From Opisthocomus hoazin (taxonomy: Eukaryota; Chordata; Aves; Opisthocomiformes; Opisthocomidae), in NCBI RefSeq assembly GCF_030867145.1, contig NC_134429.1, positions 18,523,115-18,587,114 of the forward strand: a DNA stretch of 64,000 bases, written 5' to 3'. This document shows, in pieces, positions 95 to 49,846 of this stretch; within the stretch, counting starts at the first letter, position 1; each line of letters opens with the position of its first letter. Under the pieces are notes generated by a model that did no database searches, was not told the origin of the DNA, and worked only from the letters and a program-made list of their open reading frames with translations. A program made the translations under genes and the position numbers.

Positions 95-3000
95 CCATTC
101 AATGCCACGCGCATCAACGCAGCTAACATCGAGAACAGAGTGAAGGAGCTGAACAAAATGGCAGATCACACGGAGAAGGCCAAGCAAGGGTTCTGGGAAG
201 AGTTCGAGGTACAGGATGCTCCTGTGCTCTGTCCCGCTTGTGCCTGTGGGTGAAGAATACCACGTTTGCATGGGAGTGTCATGGTTTTCCAGCGCTGAGG
301 ACCTTTTCTCAACACTGTTTCTCCTTTCCCTGTTTTCTGTGTTCAGCTGAGTTACTTCGTGGCCCTTTTATTCATTGCTTTTTCTCATCTTCAAGGCCGT
401 TTCTCCTTCCTCATCCTAGAAATGCATGCCTTTTTTTCCCTGCAAGGATTTGTGCCTTCTCCCCTCATTAACTCTCTCATCAAGCTGCTTCTTGGCTCCC
501 TTTCCCTTCCTGCCGGCACTCCCTCTGCTCTTCTCAGCATTAGGAAGCCAAGCAGCTAGTCGAAAGAGCCCTTCCTTTGCTTCTGACTCTCCTTATCTCC
601 TAGAACAGTTTGTTCTTGTGTGCTTTGCTCCACAGATGCTGCAGCAGCAAGAGTGCAAGCTCCTCTACCCCAGGAAGGAGGGACAGCGACCAGAGAACAA
701 GGCTAAGAATCGCTACAAGAACATCCTTCCCTGTAAGGAGACGCTGAATACTGGTTTGGGTTTTTTTTCACTGCAGTTTCTGCAGCCTTCTCCGGGGCTA
801 TTTAGCCCTGCAGAGCTTTGTGATCATAGCTGAGTTGGAAAGAGGTGCGCACTGTCCTAGGGGAGCGGCCCAGTTAGTTGGCCTTCTCCATCCCCTTTCT
901 AACCTGGTCCTTCCCTTTTGCGTGAGAAACAACTGATAAATTGCTCTCCTGTCTGTGTGCTGTGAGTCCAAATATGCTTCAGAGCTCAAGTGTAGCTCAA
1001 AAGTCACAAGCCAGAGCTTCCAAAGGAAATACTGGAAAACTTGAGCTCGGGTCAGCCTGCAACACTCCCTATCCCTAATGTCCATCCAAGCTACTAGCCT
1101 GGCCGCAGAGCTGTGAGCCAGGTAGTGAGGAGCACTGCTGAGTGTCATGAGAAGAGCATTTTCCACCCTTTTTTGCAGTGGTTACCCGTGTGACTTCACA
1201 GTAAGAGCCTTGTGGGAGCCCTTGCTGGGAGCTGCTGTGACCGCGCTGCCCTGCAGCAAAGCCCATGGGTGCTCCTGTGTGTGTGACTCCCTCCCGTGTT
1301 CATTCTGGCCTCTCTTCTCCTGCAGTCGATACCACACGGGTGGCACTCCGAGACGTAGATGAGAGCGTGCCTGGCTCAGACTACATCAATGCCAACTATA
1401 TCAAGGTACGTGGGAAAGGGAAGGGGCCGTGTGGGGGCTGTCTTCAGCCTGGTGCTAGGCTTCTGGTGGGTGAGTGCAGTCATGGTGTAAGCCTTGAGGG
1501 AATGCCCTGTCAGGAACCCGTATCTTTCACTGGGTCCAGGCCAAACGCTGGATTTTTCTACTGTATCCCAAGGGATCTCGTCATTCTACCATGTCCTGTT
1601 TGCCCCTATCTAAGAGCTTATTTCAGTCCCCTCCTTTCCTTCCCTGTTCAGGAGGTCCTAGGGAACTGACCCAGACTCTCTGTCATTGACCACTATCTCT
1701 GAGGTCAAATTGCAATTGTAAGCTAAGAGCTGCTTGAAGCCTTTGGGAAACCTTCAAGGTAGCTTCATTCCAGCCACGTCCACCCACAACTTCTGCAGCT
1801 GCCTGTGGGCAAGAGCCTGTTGCGCAGTACTGTGCACTACAGCAGCATGAAGGTCCCTGGAGGCAGGCAGACCGTTTTGCTGGTGACTCTGTTGAAGCCA
1901 GTGATGAGCGGTTCGTGTCCGTAGGTCTGACGAACAGAGGAAAATCAGCTAGCTCAGAAATCCTGCATGGTGAGGTGGGCTGGCTTTGCTGCCCAAGGTG
2001 CACTAAGGCAGTTCTCAATTCCTCACTCCAGCGTTGTTGGCTTCCCCCCCCCTCCCTTCTCCTTTGCTCCTCAGAGCATCCCTGAAGATGGAAGGAACTC
2101 GGAGCACTGCAAGATCTATATAGCCACCCAGGGCTGCCTGCAGACAACGGTGAATGACTTCTGGGCCATGGTGTATCAAGAGAACAGCCACGTCATTGTC
2201 ATGACAACCAAGGAGGTGGAGCGGGGCAGGGTGAGCGCTTGTAGGGTGCTGTCTCCAAGCCTGACCATTACCTGCTTCTCATGCCAGCCACTTTGGTTGG
2301 ATACAAGAACTAGTTCCAAAGCCAGGCCTTCGAACCTGAGAGGTTGGTGCAGCAGCTGCTACGTGCACCAAGCTGGGTAGTTATTAGGGGATTGTATTAA
2401 AATGTGAAGCAGAATCAGTAATGACTTAATCCTGAGCAGTCAACCTATGTTCTCCTGCCTGGACAATTGCAGGTCCCTGTCCATAATGACAGGGATCCAA
2501 GTGACAAACTCTCATTTCAGAATGGACTCTATTGCAAATCTGTGTTGCTTTCCACACAGGAGTGGCTCGGACAGGACTGGGATGCTTGAGAGTTTTTCCA
2601 TAGATTTAGAGAGCCTGACTTTGCTCTGACCATGACAAAGCATAACCCCTAGGAAGCTGCTTGTCCTAATTGTGTTTAGTTATCTCTGGCCAGCTTTCAT
2701 TTCATTCCTTCTATCTCCTGTAATGTTGCTTTAGCTCTTCTTCGTGAAAGAAGCATACCACTTTGCTCTGCACAGCCAAGCTCCCCAGCCCCATAAATAC
2801 TAATTGGGTGTCCCTCGTATGACATGCTTCAAGGCTCTGGGGAATGACAGGTGCCAGAGAGGGAATGCATCGTGCTACAGCCAAGCTGGAAAGCGGAGGG
2901 GGGCATTGCAAGCTGGCTGTGTGAGGGACAGAAGTGATTCTACAACCTATCTGTACACCGCCTGGATGCCTTTCACTAAGAGAGGGTTGGTAGAGGCCAA

Positions 3001-6000
3001 GGAACATGGTGAAATACCACGCAGAGCCGTTTTCCAGCACAGCCTTCCCTGGTAAAGAGAGGAGCGAATTATAATTGGCACTGGCAGTTTTGCTTAGGGA
3101 TGAGGGGAGGCTGGGCTTGCAGCAGCCTGGTGCAGAGATGAGATAAAGATAGCTCGACTCGCACGCCTGCTTTTATATTGGCAAAGTCACTATAGCAAAG
3201 AGGGGGTGGGCTGGAGAACAGGAGGGGTATGGGCAGGCTACGTGGCCCCTGGGGTGGAGATTTGGCTCAGGAGTTAGCGAATGACCAGACCAACAGCTCA
3301 GGTGCCTTTGGCAAAGCAATGCCTAGCTGAGGCTGGATGTAGCTGAGGAGGATGATTCCCCTGGGGATCATGTCCTTCATGTAGGAACAACCCTTTCCGA
3401 TGCATCCCCCATTCAAAGGAAATGCTCTGTGCGTATGGCTCTGCTTTAAACCTCTACGCTGGGGCTGCACGCCCTTCGCTGCATCCCTGCGCAAGGCGTT
3501 GAGGGCTTCGTCCCCCAGCATCCCTGTCCTGACTAACGAGCCGCTCTCTGATGTTGCTGCAGAACAAGTGCTTCCGTTACTGGCCAGACAAGGGCTGCAC
3601 CAAGGAATATGGGTGCATCTCTGTGCGTAACGTGAGCGAGCGTGAGGCCCAGGGCTACTACCTTCGGGAGCTGGAGATCTCGCGGACTGACAGGGTGAGT
3701 CCTCTGCTGCTGTCTGCCCGCTGTGCTGGGACCGGGCTGGCGCTGGAACCCCTGGGGAAGGAGCTGTGGCTTTTCTGGTTGTTTTTTTTTCTATATAATA
3801 ATCCCACTGCTTAAGTTCTGGGCCACTTTGCCCCAGCTTTGATAAAAAGAAAGGATGGAGAAGCAGGAGGGGGTTTCTGACCGGGTGGTGGGTCTCTGCT
3901 CCCCGCAGGATGAGCGCCCAAGACTGGTGAAGCACTATCAGTATTTTAGCTGGCCAGACCACGGGGTGCCCAATGAACCAGGAGGGGTTCTGAGCTTTCT
4001 GGACCAAGTGAATCGGGCACAGCGAAGCATTCCAGACACGGGGCCGATCATAGTGCACTGCAGGTACGAGCCCGTGGGCCCTCAGTGGGGCACTGCAGTG
4101 GGGATGATGATGATGATGATGATAAAAATGGGTCTCTTCTTTTTAGTTACACCTGCAGCTGGGTCTTTACATGAGCTGGTGGTGGGCAATTGGGATAGAA
4201 GTACACACATGGGAAAAGACAGCCCTCCTCCAGAGCCTCACTGGTGATAGCGCAGGGAAGAGCAGGCCTGGTCTGGAGCTGGTAGCTCTGGTGCAGCCTG
4301 CTGGGCTCTGACCTCCCAAGGGTCAGCATTTGGCCGGGGTTGTCTCATAGCAGCCGTGCCACATCTGACCAGGATGGACCAGGCAGCGGATGAGTGTGGG
4401 AGCTGAGCTGACTGACTCTGCGGAACGGTTCCTCCTGCAATGATTTTTTTTTTTTTTCCCTTTTCTCTTTCCAGTGCTGGAATAGGACGCACAGGCACCA
4501 TCATAGTGATAGATATTCTGGTGGATATTATTCACAGGCAAGGTATGTCTCCCTGTCTGTCTCGTGGCTTTCACCGTTTGCCTTGCGCTGGCCAGTTATG
4601 GGATAACCTTGCTCTTGTGCAAGCACTGGGTACTTGATCTCCAAGCAGTGGGTTTGACTGGTCTGGGAACAGTTGGGCATAGGCTTAGCCTGAATGCAGG
4701 GTGAGAAGGGGAACTTGTGCCCAGTTCCCTGTTGCTCTGTGGGCCAAGAAATGGAGCTGTATTGCAATGAAGAGTGAACCTACTCCCTCTAGTAAGGGAG
4801 ATGGAGAATCTTCTCGTTGGCATCAACAGGGCCAGGACTTCAGGCTTTCCTGGACAACCCTCTTTTATTGAGGGTGGAGGGAAACAGGTTCAGTAAGGGT
4901 GTGACTCCAGTAGCCCATTTAGAAGGAAGTCCCCCAGACTCTGCTGTGTGGAAAGGCTGTCACCCTTACCTGAAGTTCTAGAGCTGCTATGGAACTCCCC
5001 ATGGTATCTCTGGGTCTGTTCTGGGAGCCTTGAGGCAGGTGGACCCTTTTCAGCAGTGGTTGTACCTTATTTCATAAACCACACAAAGTGGGTAAGTCTG
5101 GATCTGTAGGACCTGCCGCAGAACAGATGTAATTCCCCTCCCCGTGCTCCAAGCAAGTCAGCCCTGCCTCAGCCATTCTCAGTCCAGGGTGCTCTGGCAG
5201 GGATAAAACAGGAAAAAAAAAAAAAATCTCCTAGGCACAGAGATGCACCAAATTCTTTAATAATATTCTGGGGCTTTGCTGACACTGTGTGCAGGGAGAT
5301 ACTGAAAACTTTTGAAGTTATCTTAAGAAAATAATTTTTTCAACCTAATTCCCATTCCCTAAACCTCTTGGGCAGGTTTGGACTGCGATATCGACATCCC
5401 CAAAACCATCCAGATGGTACGCAGGCAGCGCTCGGGCATGGTGCAGACGGAGGCGCAGTACAAGTTCGTTTACATGGCTGTTCAGCAGTACATCGAGGCC
5501 GAGCAGAAGAGGTTGGAGGAAGAGCAGGTGAGTCCCCTTCGGCTCGGTTGGAAAAGCAAGGGCAGAACGTGGCCCACACCGAACGCCGCTTCCACCTTCT
5601 CCCTGGAGCTCAAATACTGCCCTGAACGCGTGAGAATAAACCCACGCCCGCCGCTGCCCTGCTGGCTTGCGGGATCTCGTAAGGCTTTCTTCTGTAGCTG
5701 CTTTGAGTGGGATTTTATTGTCTTTTGCTTTCTTTTTCAGAGGAATAAAAGGAAAGAGCGAGACTACTTGAATATCGGCTACTCTCCTATGGAAAAAGGC
5801 AGAGCCAAAGGGCAGCCCCCATCGCCGCGGGCCCCGTCTGTGTAAGCTCGATGTCTCTCGAGGAACTTGCGTAGCAGCAGAGAGAACGGCTTGGGCAGAG
5901 CCCCAGTATTTACCCTTTGCCAGCCTGCCTCTCGCACACCTGAAACCTGACCAGTTGCTGGCTGCCCTATGGGAATGGCTAAAAATAAACTGGTGATCCC

Positions 6001-6347
6001 ACCGCGCTGGTGGCAGCGGCGGTGGCAGCCCACCTTGCTTGTGTGCTGAGCTCTGGGAAGGGAGAGGAGGCAGTCGCTCCGAGCCTTGGGCGAGTAGTGC
6101 CACGTATCCTTGGCGCTGGGGACTCAGCTGGAGAGTGAGACTGTGCTGCTGCTGAGGGACCTTTACAGCAAAAGCTGAAGAAAGATGAGAAGAGAGCAGA
6201 GGGAGGTGGAAAAAGATCCAGAGCAGTGAGGCTGTTAATAACAAGGCTTTGTTTCTTGACAGGGTTGATGATGAGTCGGCTTCCGTCTACGAGAACCTGA
6301 ACATCAAAAGCCCAAAGGTTTCAGGGATGAGTAATACAGGGCGATAA
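95..6347 (+). CDS. PTPN6/PTPN11-like: SHP-family non-receptor tyrosine phosphatase, catalytic domain and tail (5' end off window)
   Basis: Ten exons with GT-AG borders and matching phases: 95-208, 636-732, 1326-1405, 2075-2230, 3563-3694, 3909-4063, 4475-4542, 5376-5527, 5741-5841, 6263-6347 (TAA at 6345-6347). They give 379 residues. SHP proteins are about 595 residues, so the two SH2 domains and the start lie left of the window. Catalytic parts are intact: the substrate loop KNRYKNILP (exon 2), WPDHGVP with the general-acid Asp (exon 6), the P-loop HCSAGIGRT with Cys and Arg, split by the 4064-4474 intron, and the Q-loop QRSGMVQTE (exon 8). The tail keeps two tyrosines, DYLNIGY and VYENLNI, matching the regulated tail tyrosines of SHP-1 and SHP-2. 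Known family role: cytosolic dephosphorylation of phosphotyrosine proteins recruited through SH2 domains. An active enzyme is inferred. Family assignment is near certain. The paralogue is not: exons 2, 4, 5, 7 and 8 look closer to PTPN11, while exon 6 and the last Tyr motif look closer to PTPN6. Confidence 0.95.
4103..4123 (+). repeat. (GAT)7 microsatellite in phosphatase intron
   Basis: Seven perfect GAT units just inside the intron that splits the P-loop codons. No functional role is seen. Confidence 0.9.
5840..5989 (+). other. In-frame stop at exon 9 donor plus intronic poly(A) signal
   Basis: Reading through the exon 9 donor (5842) gives Val then TAA at 5843-5845. An AATAAA lies downstream at 5984-5989, still inside the intron. 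Intron retention or intronic polyadenylation would give a protein ending after ...PRAPSV, without the last exon and its VYENL tyrosine. The stop and the signal are seen directly; their use is inferred. Confidence 0.35.
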
Positions 6348-10478: not shown

Positions 10479-11288
10479 CTACTGGAAAGGGAGTTGTGTC
10501 GTGGGTGCTGCCGCTGTGGTGGGCTTAGGGGAGAGATACTCCGGTCTGCTCATCGCAACAGTCCTTGTGAAGCAGCGGAGGTTCCCCGTCTTCAGGGCGC
10601 ACTGGACCGGCCACAGAATGATGCAGAACAGGATGATGATCAACGCAGAGAGGAGGACTATGCGTTTCCAGTCGTCGCACATGTCGCAGCGGGACAGCCT
10701 CCCAGCTAACCCAGCCGGGGGGACCTCCGGACTTTCTGGCTTGCTCATGGCAACGTCAATGGAGATACACGAGTCTGGATTCTCAGGGTCATCAGACGAC
10801 TGACGGCAGCAGAGCTTGGTCCCTTCCATCCAGAGCACCTTCTCCTGCTGAAGTTCAGGCGGCAGCGTGGCAAGGAGCTCCTTGCTGGTCTCAAGTGCTG
10901 GAGCACCTTCCAGAGGGATGCTGGTCAGCTGCCTGCAGAAGGGGCAAGGGAGCTGGTCCTCTGGTTGGTTTGGTGGCAGCCCTGTGCTCAGGCGGGCCAC
11001 GCACTCCAGGCAGAAAACGTGGGAGCACTGGAGCAGCTTGGGTGTCTTGAAGGTGTTGTCATAGGTGTTGAAGCAAATGGAGCACTCAACAGGGGAGGCT
11101 GGCTTCGGAGACGTTGGATTTGGAGAGCCTGGCTTGTCGGTTGGGGACCTCGCCTTCCTCTTGCCATCTCCTGGGGAGGTGACAACAATGGGGCTGATGG
11201 GGATGGGGATTTCGCTTGGAGATGCAGGGACTGGGCTGGTGGGAGAGTCCGGCGTGCTGGAGTGCCACAGCTGCGTGAAGCACGACAT
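10479..11288 (-). CDS. RNF223: RING finger protein 223, membrane-anchored E3 ubiquitin ligase
   Basis: An intact single-exon 269-residue protein. Residues 1-67 are Ser/Pro-rich with many SP and TP sites. A C3HC4 RING spans about residues 69-118, with spacing C-x2-C-x15-C-x-H-x2-C-x2-C-x18-C-x2-C and the signatures ECSICFNTYDNTF and CSHVFCLEC. A single hydrophobic helix spans about 210-228 (IVLLSALIIILFCIILWPV), with a short polar C-terminus. The layout of N-terminal RING and C-terminal anchor fits the RNF183/186/223-like group of membrane E3 ligases. Adjacency to C1orf159 points to RNF223 specifically, since the two are neighbours at human 1p36.33. Role inferred from family: transfer of ubiquitin from an E2 at an internal membrane; substrates unknown. 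The start is the first ATG after a splice acceptor (AG at 11328-11327, minus). The gene is convergent with the upstream phosphatase gene. Confidence 0.88.
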   Translation of the reverse strand: MSCFTQLWHSSTPDSPTSPVPASPSEIPIPISPIVVTSPGDGKRKARSPTDKPGSPNPTSPKPASPVECSICFNTYDNTFKTPKLLQCSHVFCLECVARLSTGLPPNQPEDQLPCPFCRQLTSIPLEGAPALETSKELLATLPPELQQEKVLWMEGTKLCCRQSSDDPENPDSCISIDVAMSKPESPEVPPAGLAGRLSRCDMCDDWKRIVLLSALIIILFCIILWPVQCALKTGNLRCFTRTVAMSRPEYLSPKPTTAAAPTTQLPFQ

Positions 11289-11326
11289 GACGGAGCTCGG
11301 GGAAATAAATAGAGCCCTGGGAGACT
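11289..11326 (-). other. RNF223: RNF223 5' UTR portion of the coding exon
   Basis: On the minus strand a pyrimidine-rich acceptor (TTTTCTTCTCTTCCAG, ending at 11327) precedes 38 bases leading to the ATG at 11288. The coding exon therefore receives an upstream non-coding exon by splicing. Confidence 0.7.
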
Positions 11327-11329
11327 CTG

Positions 11330-14300
11330 GAAGAGAAGAAAACCACAGCCTTCATTTCAAACAATGTGAAGATGCCCATCACCAGACCTATGCTTAACCC
11401 CTTAAAAGGAACAAAGAGCAAGTTCATGACTTCTACTGCATCCTGAGCCTGGAATAGACCCCTGCTAGAGGCGAGAATGACACAGGTAGCCTGTTTGAAG
11501 CTGCATACTGAAGGTGAAATAAAACATCCTGCAAAGAAGCAAGCAACCAGCAGAGATCCAGAATCCAGCCAAAGCCTTTTCACCAGAACCACCATGGCAT
11601 TATAGATGGGTGCAGTCTTTCCCCGTACATGCCTCCCTCTGGGCAGGAAAAAACACAATAAAAACCTACCCCGGCTGGTGCTCCCCGAGACCTGAAGAGG
11701 GAGGAGAGCAGAAGACTCCATGAGGTCAAGTAGGGACCTCGCTATGGCAGTCTATTAGTCTGGGAGGCACTCAGATATTATGGTGGCAGCATGGGCAAGG
11801 CCTAAGAGACAGATAACACCATTCAGTTGTGGAGGTAGCAGAGGGGGCGAATCTCTTCTCTTTGGTGTGCTCAGAGCGAGCTTTGTGCCTTGAATTGTGG
11901 TTCTGCATGCTGCCTAGGAGGCAAGGGAGACACTGCCCAAGGATGCTGCCTGGTTTTGTCTGTCCACAGTGGGTTCTGAACTCCCTCGTGTCGCAGGAGA
12001 ACCCAAGGGAGGTGAGGAAACACTGTTATCTTGCAAGGTTTGTTCCACCCTCTGCCTTCAAGCAGCACAAGAAGCATCTCTGTCTTGTCACCGTGACACA
12101 GCAAGAAAAGCAACGATGCTGGAGGAAACGGCGTTGGTGCCAGACGGAGGGCAAGTCTCCGCTGTTTCCTCGTTGCTCTGGTTTCCCCGGGGAAGCGCAG
12201 TTTTTCCCTGTCCTCAGCCCTGGAGGAGTGCCAGCACGGCCCAAGCCTCGCCGTGTGCTGCCATACGCTCTCTGCTTTGTGGTGGTGTGCAAGCAGGAGC
12301 CTTGGCTTGCACGGCTAATACGCCGGTTCCACCACATTGGTCTACAACTTACGCCACGCTTTTCAGCAGCCTAAGGATTACCTCGAATTCCAGTTATCCT
12401 AGGCCAGACGTGCAGCTTTGTGTACATTCTGATATTCAGATATATGACTTTTCAGCTATTGAGCACTTGTACCTGAAAGCAAGCGTTTAGCTGGAGGAAA
12501 TTGCCAGCGCCAGCCCTGGTGCTGTATGCCTGGGGAAAATTTTTTTTAGGATGTGTCACCTAACTAGCTAGGCTTGATTCTTTGTGTTAGGAGATCTACC
12601 GATGACAAGCCAGAAACCTGTAGATTGCTGCTGTAATTATAAGTCTCCAGTCAATCCTGCAGTGGCTCACCAGCACGGGCTAGAGACTCCACATCTCAGT
12701 ATAAAATGCTAATTTAAGGTATCAGAAAGACCATGTGTCCTCACATTGCACAAGAAAGTCTCCATTATTTAAAGAATGAAGCATTCTCCCCTCTCCCGTC
12801 ACAGCTAGCATTGCCAGAGCTGAAACCAGCTTTAAGAACCTTGCTTCTTCTCCTATTCTAAATGAAGAAATTTTTGTGCAGTGTCTCCTCAAGTCACATT
12901 TTCAGTCACAGACTATCTGCACTTTTCCGCAAGCTGTAATGTTGGGGGGTTTTTTAATGTATTTTTTTCAGACTGCAGATCACCATGCGTGTTTTAGCAC
13001 AATCTGGCAGATGCTGATGAATTACAAATCCAAGCCCAGGCTGGCACAGAACTGAGGAAAATCCCTGGTTTGTTTTTCTTTTTTACTAAATCTGCTGTTT
13101 TGCACAACTCCATGCCCTACGCCCAGTTCTTTGCAGTCCCTCAGCCTGGAGTGGCTGTCAGAAATTATCAGCAGCAAAGCCAGTGGCAGGAGGTAACCTC
13201 AGAAAGAGAGAGCCTTTGCTTGTGCAAACTGTTACTTCATAACCTAGGTGAAAAAGCTGTTCTGTTGGGGTTTTTACTAGTCTGTAAAATGCCAGCTATA
13301 GCAACAGCGGTATCTGGATGGTAAACTTGAGGAAGTTTGCTTACAGCAGTTGCTTTTAAATGAAGATCCAAGCTTTTGCCCACATTTTCCCTTTGCTAAA
13401 GATGATCGCAACATTATAGATGCCTGTTAGCTTTAATAAAGTTAGAGTCTACTTATTTTTATCAGCATCTTGGTGTTATATGGCACCTTGATCAGGCACG
13501 ACGCAGGTAGTTGACTTAAACTGGGGAGATATGAAGAGCAGGGCACACAGCCAAGGCACGGAAAAGAGAGCTTTAATCCGTCCTCTGCCTCACTGGACAG
13601 GTCAGCCTCTGCCTGCTTCTTGTGTCTTTTGCTCTGTTGCCGTAGTGCTGATGCTCGGAAAGCTAAACTGGGTTTGGGCAGCAGCTAGCGCAGGGACCGA
13701 GATTTCTCCTGGGTGCTACTGCTGTACGACTAAAGGAGAGCCAGGCACTAAAGCTGGAGGGACCCAAGGAAGACGCACAGTGTGCAATCTCAACAGAATT
13801 AGTTAGGGTTTGGGGGTTTTGTTTGTTTTTCTATCAGGTTTGTTTTCTACTACACGATCACTGGCTTTCTTTTTTTTTAATACGAGACAGTATCTTCAAG
13901 TGTTCCGACCTCCACAGTCGCACTGCATTTCCTCAGACTCTGCAGCTATTTACCTTGCTTTCCCAGCTATTTACCTGGGCTTTCCAGAAACTTTGGAAAC
14001 CTTGATAAATAACTAAACCGTTCAGGAGAGACACATAAACTCAGATTTAAAATTAGTTAAGTATTTTTTACTTCCCAACAAGTTCTAGAAAACTTTCCAT
14101 ACCATAAAACCAGACAACAGCAAACACACAGTTAGGGCAGTGGCCAACTGTAATAAGCTTCCCTAATGGTATCCTTAACTCAGAGCAACTGAACACACAG
14201 AAAGTTAAGAGGTATACAGCAGATAAAAGTCTATAAATACCTGTTCAGAGTGCCGTTTAGAAGGAGAAAAGCATGTTCTGGGCTCTTGATTTCTACCCCT

Positions 14301-40726: not shown

Positions 40727-49846
<9,120 letters not shown>

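What the first reader, a model, noticed from the sequence alone, without database searches (positions are those of the whole stretch)
95..6347. Possible third SHP phosphatase (ohnologue of PTPN6 and PTPN11) in a 1p36-like block
The encoded catalytic domain mixes residues diagnostic of the two known vertebrate SHPs. [10 protein letters not shown] and KEVERG match PTPN11; [26 protein letters not shown] and VYENL match PTPN6. By eye against the human proteins as I recall them, exons 2, 4, 5, 7 and 8 are nearer PTPN11 and exon 6 is nearer PTPN6. PTPN6 lies at human 12p13 with GNB3, ENO2 and SCNN1A, whose paralogues GNB1, ENO1 and SCNN1D are at 1p36. A SHP gene beside RNF223 and C1orf159 (1p36.33) is what a retained whole-genome-duplication copy, lost in mammals, would look like. 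Catalytic residues are intact, so it would be a working enzyme.
Basis: partly seen in the sequence, partly recalled or inferred. Interest (0 to 1): 0.7.

Follow-up and report, generated by a model that had tools for sequence, protein, structure and literature searches.

The report
Known third SHP phosphatase gene (SHP3)

Summary
Window 95-6347 (+) is the 3' part of an intact SHP phosphatase gene (10 of the 14 coding exons read; the two SH2 domains lie just upstream of the window). The same genome has two other SHP genes: PTPN6 (C1, near an atrophin gene; 487 of 588 residues identical to the human chain used) and PTPN11 (C13; 524 of 533). In a five-sequence maximum-likelihood tree the PTPN6 pair and the PTPN11 pair each get 100/100 support and the window gene lies outside both. 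Agrin lies upstream on the same contig. Enolase and atrophin pairs link this contig to the PTPN6 region, as a whole-genome-duplication block would. It is not new: Liongue et al. 2012 named this third clade SHP3 (zebrafish, chicken, toad; mammalian pseudogene by HES4/AGRN), and Kondo et al. 2025 named it SHP-2L (sharks to mammals, lost in higher primates and glires). "Lost in mammals" is therefore too broad. What stays open is whether its sister is SHP1 (2012 view, supported by the gene pairs here) or SHP2 (2025 naming, supported by overall similarity). I could not root the tree.

The parts
95..208 (+). coding exon 6: linker between C-SH2 and PTP domain
   Evidence: AG/GT borders, in frame; 67% to the PTPN11 locus and 62% to the PTPN6 locus of the same genome
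636..732 (+). coding exon 7: start of PTP domain ([17 protein letters not shown])
1326..1405 (+). coding exon 8
2075..2230 (+). coding exon 9 (KEVERG)
   Evidence: 76% to the PTPN11 locus over query residues 104-152
3563..3694 (+). coding exon 10, the least shared exon (12 of 15 diagnostic sites in a state of its own)
3909..4063 (+). coding exon 11: WPD loop and catalytic cysteine; nearest PTPN6 (10 of 15 diagnostic sites)
4475..4542 (+). coding exon 12: rest of the [11 protein letters not shown] signature loop
5376..5527 (+). coding exon 13: Q loop, end of PTP domain
5741..5841 (+). coding exon 14: tail with first tyrosine motif (DYLNI)
6263..6347 (+). coding exon 15: second tyrosine motif (VYENL) and stop TAA

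Best explanation
The gene is the SHP3 / SHP-2L orthologue (zebrafish ptpn11b): a cytosolic tyrosine phosphatase with two SH2 domains, a PTP domain and a tail with two tyrosine motifs. It most likely works like SHP2. At rest the N-SH2 domain blocks the active site. Binding of the two SH2 domains to a receptor or adaptor tail with two phosphotyrosine motifs (ITIM/ITSM type) opens the enzyme, which then removes phosphate from nearby tyrosines and feeds into ERK-type signalling, possibly with a T-cell bias. Shown here: gene structure, domains, conserved catalytic, phosphotyrosine-binding and autoinhibition residues, agrin on the same contig, and the presence of separate PTPN6 and PTPN11 genes. Inferred from the literature on orthologues and on SHP2: activity, regulation and partners.
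For: 14 coding exons spliced with AG/GT borders and no internal stop, 589 residues from the first SH2 tryptophan. Pfam: two SH2 stretches and one PTP domain, E 1.2e-53 and 1.3e-79. The 14 exons correspond one to one with those read for PTPN6 and PTPN11 of the same genome, with the same length in all three genes for 9 of 14. Of 19 SHP2 positions checked (among them R32, R138, N58, D61, E76, K366, D425, C459, R465, Q506, Q510), 18 are as in SHP2; the one change is L210 to V (roles recalled), the change that Kondo et al. report for SHP-2L. Tree: outside both clades, 100/100 for each pair. Agrin N-terminal domain on the same contig and strand, C16:18324407-18333821; Liongue et al. give HES4 and AGRN as flanks of the mammalian pseudogene, Kondo et al. 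show AGRN as landmark. Zebrafish Shp2b is an active phosphatase, more active with D61G, and ptpn11b RNA largely rescues ptpn11 mutants (passages of PMC3988099).
Against: No SHP3 / SHP-2L sequence from another species was available, so orthology rests on the published description, synteny and one residue, not on a tree with SHP3 sequences. The position-210 valine is also found in both PTPN6 sequences, so alone it is weak. About 176 kb separate the agrin N-terminal exons from the first SHP exon read; what lies between was not worked out, and a motif scan of the nearest 60 kb showed no clear agrin exon. HES4 was not looked for. No expression data. In cattle Kondo et al. saw no T-cell bias.
Confidence: 0.95

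Rival explanations
1. It is simply this genome's PTPN6 or PTPN11, fast evolving or displaced.
For: Mixed residues could come from a diverged copy.
Against: Both other genes are present on other contigs, 82.8% and 98.3% identical to the human chains; tree support 100/100 for both pairs without the window gene.
Confidence: 0.01
2. It is a recent lineage-specific duplicate of PTPN11.
For: It is nearer PTPN11 (409 of 580 identical) than PTPN6 (361 of 578) of its own genome, and nearer by path in the tree (0.56 against 0.94).
Against: Human and own-genome PTPN11 are identical at 524 of 533, so the window gene's split from PTPN11 is far older than the split of the species; agrin landmark and published presence from shark to mammal.
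Confidence: 0.01
3. It is a decaying pseudogene, as reported for human.
For: Liongue et al. report a mammalian and Kondo et al. a human pseudogene.
Against: 14 exons in frame, AG/GT borders, no internal stop, catalytic residues intact. A lesion in exon 1 or the promoter was not excluded.
Confidence: 0.03

Closest known systems
SHP3 (Liongue et al. 2012, PMC3296744)
   Same: Third clade apart from SHP1 and SHP2, in zebrafish with related genes in chicken and toad; mammalian pseudogene flanked by HES4 and AGRN. Here too a gene outside both clades, with agrin on the same contig.
   Different: Nothing found that sets it apart; HES4 was not looked for and no SHP3 sequence was compared.
SHP-2L (Kondo et al. 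2025, PMC12151841)
   Same: Third SHP with AGRN as landmark, >60% identical to SHP2, valine at SHP2 position 210, divergent tail with two YxN motifs.
   Different: Kondo et al. treat it as a second SHP2; the gene pairs seen here point rather to SHP1 as its duplicate.
zebrafish ptpn11b / Shp2b (Bonetti et al. 2014, PMC3988099)
   Same: Given there as 64% to human SHP2; an active phosphatase; Kondo et al. identify it with SHP-2L.
   Different: Bonetti et al. discussed it in the light of the teleost duplication. The species of the present genome was not determined.
PTPN6 (SHP1) and PTPN11 (SHP2)
   Same: Domain order, exon order, catalytic residues.
   Different: 62.4-62.5% and 70.5-74.0% identity; separate genes in the same genome.

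Membership tests
SHP family (tandem SH2 + PTP) | two SH2 domains followed by one PTP domain | tested here: met
   Pfam PF00017 two stretches, PF00102 one
SHP family (tandem SH2 + PTP) | intact PTP signature HC(X5)R, WPD aspartate, Q-loop glutamines | tested here: met
   VHCSAGIGRT; D425, Q506, Q510 equivalents
SHP family (tandem SH2 + PTP) | two tyrosine motifs in the tail | tested here: met
   DYLNI and VYENL
SHP family (tandem SH2 + PTP) | phosphatase activity released by SH2 binding | not testable with these tools
   needs purified protein
SHP3 / SHP-2L | outside the PTPN6 and PTPN11 clades | tested here: met
   five-sequence ML tree, 100/100 for both pairs; no SHP3 sequence of another species in the tree
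SHP3 / SHP-2L | coexists with PTPN6 and PTPN11 on different chromosomes | tested here: met
   contigs C16, C1, C13
SHP3 / SHP-2L | agrin as neighbour or landmark | tested here: met
   NtA domain at C16:18324407-18333821, + strand; met as a landmark on the same contig, direct adjacency not shown
SHP3 / SHP-2L | HES4 as neighbour | not tested
   -
SHP3 / SHP-2L | valine in place of SHP2 L210 | tested here: met
   V in window gene, L in both PTPN11, V also in both PTPN6
SHP3 / SHP-2L | groups with known SHP3/SHP-2L proteins | not testable with these tools
   no vertebrate SHP sequences beyond this genome and the human chains of the PDB were at hand
PTPN6 orthologue | groups with human PTPN6 | tested here: not met
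PTPN11 orthologue | groups with human PTPN11 | tested here: not met

The most novel reading that the evidence does not exclude
SHP3 / SHP-2L is the whole-genome-duplication twin of SHP1, not of SHP2, and looks SHP2-like only because SHP1 changed faster. In this genome the enolase and atrophin matches above cut-off all lie either on the SHP3 contig or within about 45 kb of PTPN6, and none on the PTPN11 contig. The 2025 name SHP-2L would then mislead.
Probability: 0.55. Interest if true: 0.3.

Novelty: already known. Interest (0 to 1): 0.2.

Why it matters
It confirms, in one genome and by an independent route, that some vertebrates carry three SHP phosphatases where humans and mice have two. 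That matters for carrying results on SHP1/SHP2 and PD-1 signalling between mouse or human and other species. The gene itself is already in print, so the gain here is a clean case and gene-pair evidence on its origin.

Tried and rejected
Rejected: PTPN6 or PTPN11 displaced (both found elsewhere); recent PTPN11 copy; pseudogene. Rooting the tree: no invertebrate SHP was at hand. I looked at another PTP of the genome as an outgroup (L002; it looks PTPN13-like by recall) and dropped it as partial and too distant. A motif scan for agrin in the 60 kb upstream gave nothing convincing; the Pfam search then placed the agrin N-terminal domain further upstream. No other SHP genes were sought by their SH2 domains.

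Papers. Searches: 0 papers; 291 papers, 15 listed, none opened; 10 listed, two opened; 3 papers, 2 listed; 9 listed, one opened; 1 paper; 0 papers. Seen: PMC3296744, passages and section 7; PMC12151841, outline, passages and section 14; PMC3988099, passages. No supplements or figures seen. The names RNF223, C1orf159, ATN1, RERE and ENO1/2, the human map positions and the roles of numbered SHP2 residues are recalled.

Full report
The gene. Window 95-6347 on the + strand holds ten coding exons of a SHP-type phosphatase, ending in TAA at 6345-6347. The window cuts the gene. The window is C16:18523115-18587114 of a 1.48 Gb genome in 415 contigs, and in the 13.3 kb upstream I read four more exons (C16:18509844-18522912) that encode the two SH2 domains. 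Spliced together, 14 exons give 589 residues from the first SH2 tryptophan, with no internal stop and AG/GT borders. The first exon was not located. Pfam finds two SH2 stretches and one PTP domain.

Other copies in the genome. A search of the whole genome with the window part of the protein gave 72 matches (108 of 137 candidates scored; counts are lower bounds). Only three loci match the linker exon (query 1-42): C16, C13 and C1. I spliced the other two genes. The C1 gene (C1:140617014-140625700) scores 1106 bits against human PTPN6 and 716 against the best PTPN11 chain, and is identical at 487 of 588 residues to the human PTPN6 chain 3ps5. The C13 gene (from C13:27527900) is identical at 524 of 533 to the human PTPN11 chain 4nwg. 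The window gene is identical at 361 of 578 and 409 of 580 to these two genes of its own genome. The PDB chains may carry engineered or disease changes (3ps5 has S at the catalytic cysteine), which hardly matters here.

Mixed residues. Of 140 sites that separate PTPN6 from PTPN11 in both human and this genome, the window gene is PTPN11-like at 58, PTPN6-like at 38 and different from both at 44. Exons 2-5 (SH2 domains) lean to PTPN11 (34 PTPN11-like, 12 PTPN6-like of 56 sites); exon 11 (window 3909-4063) leans to PTPN6 (10 against 2 of 15).

Tree. IQ-TREE on the five proteins (604 of 626 columns kept) gives 100/100 for the PTPN6 pair and 100/100 for the PTPN11 pair; the window gene is outside both, on an end branch of 0.15. 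By path it is nearer PTPN11 (0.56) than PTPN6 (0.94), and the midpoint drawing joins it to PTPN11; the root was not inferred.

Surroundings. Within the window lie a RING gene at 10482-11351 on the - strand (Pfam zf-RING_5) and a DUF4501 exon at 45709-45999 on the + strand; these fit RNF223 and C1orf159 by recall. Agrin's N-terminal domain lies at C16:18324407-18333821 on the + strand (2 of 2 matches in the genome), about 176 kb before the first SHP exon read. The 10 enolase matches lie on two loci: C16:17.53 Mb and C1:140.57 Mb, the latter about 44 kb from PTPN6. Of 12 atrophin matches, 11 lie on two loci: C16:17.79 Mb and C1:140.604-140.607 Mb, about 10 kb from PTPN6; the twelfth (C9) is below the family cut-off. 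None of these matches lies on the PTPN11 contig. This is what a duplicated block shared by SHP3 and PTPN6 would look like. GNB, SCNN1 and others were not tested, and no comparable search was made for families around PTPN11, so the contrast is one-sided.

What is known. Liongue et al. 2012 found three SHP genes in zebrafish and related genes in chicken and toad, named the third clade SHP3, and reported a mammalian pseudogene flanked by HES4 and AGRN; they derive SHP1 and SHP3 from one intermediate. Kondo et al. 2025 found the gene from sharks to mammals, named it SHP-2L, gave AGRN as landmark, and reported intact frames in cattle, platypus, tree shrew and flying lemur, with loss in glires and higher primates. 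They report valine at the position of SHP2 L210; the window gene has it, though PTPN6 does too. Zebrafish ptpn11b, which Kondo et al. equate with SHP-2L, encodes an active phosphatase, and its RNA largely rescues mutants that lack Shp2a.

How it works. Of 19 SHP2 positions checked, for phosphotyrosine binding, autoinhibition and catalysis among others, 18 are unchanged and L210 is V (roles recalled); two tail tyrosine motifs are present. The most likely mode is therefore that of SHP2: closed at rest, opened when both SH2 domains bind a doubly phosphorylated tail. This is inferred, not shown.

Verdict. A correct observation of a gene that is already in print. What remains of interest is its origin: overall similarity favours SHP2 as nearest relative, the gene pairs favour SHP1 as its duplicate. 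Since PTPN6 has changed faster than PTPN11 (human against this genome 82.8% and 98.3%), similarity is the weaker guide.

Noticed in passing
window 45709-45999 (+) and 10482-11351 (-): The DUF4501 (C1orf159-like) exon is on the + strand while the RING gene is on the - strand; by recall both human genes lie on the same strand, so a local inversion is possible.
   Followed up: no
L013 (C1:140620705-140620927): The PTPN6 gene of this genome has a C-SH2 exon of 223 bases against 193 in PTPN11 and the window gene; the alignment with human PTPN6 shows 11 extra residues there.
   Followed up: partly
window 3563-3694: Exon 10 of the window gene is in a state of its own at 12 of 15 PTPN6/PTPN11 diagnostic sites, the highest share of any exon (next: exon 14 with 2 of 3, exon 8 with 4 of 8); this could mark a changed surface of the PTP domain.
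   Followed up: no
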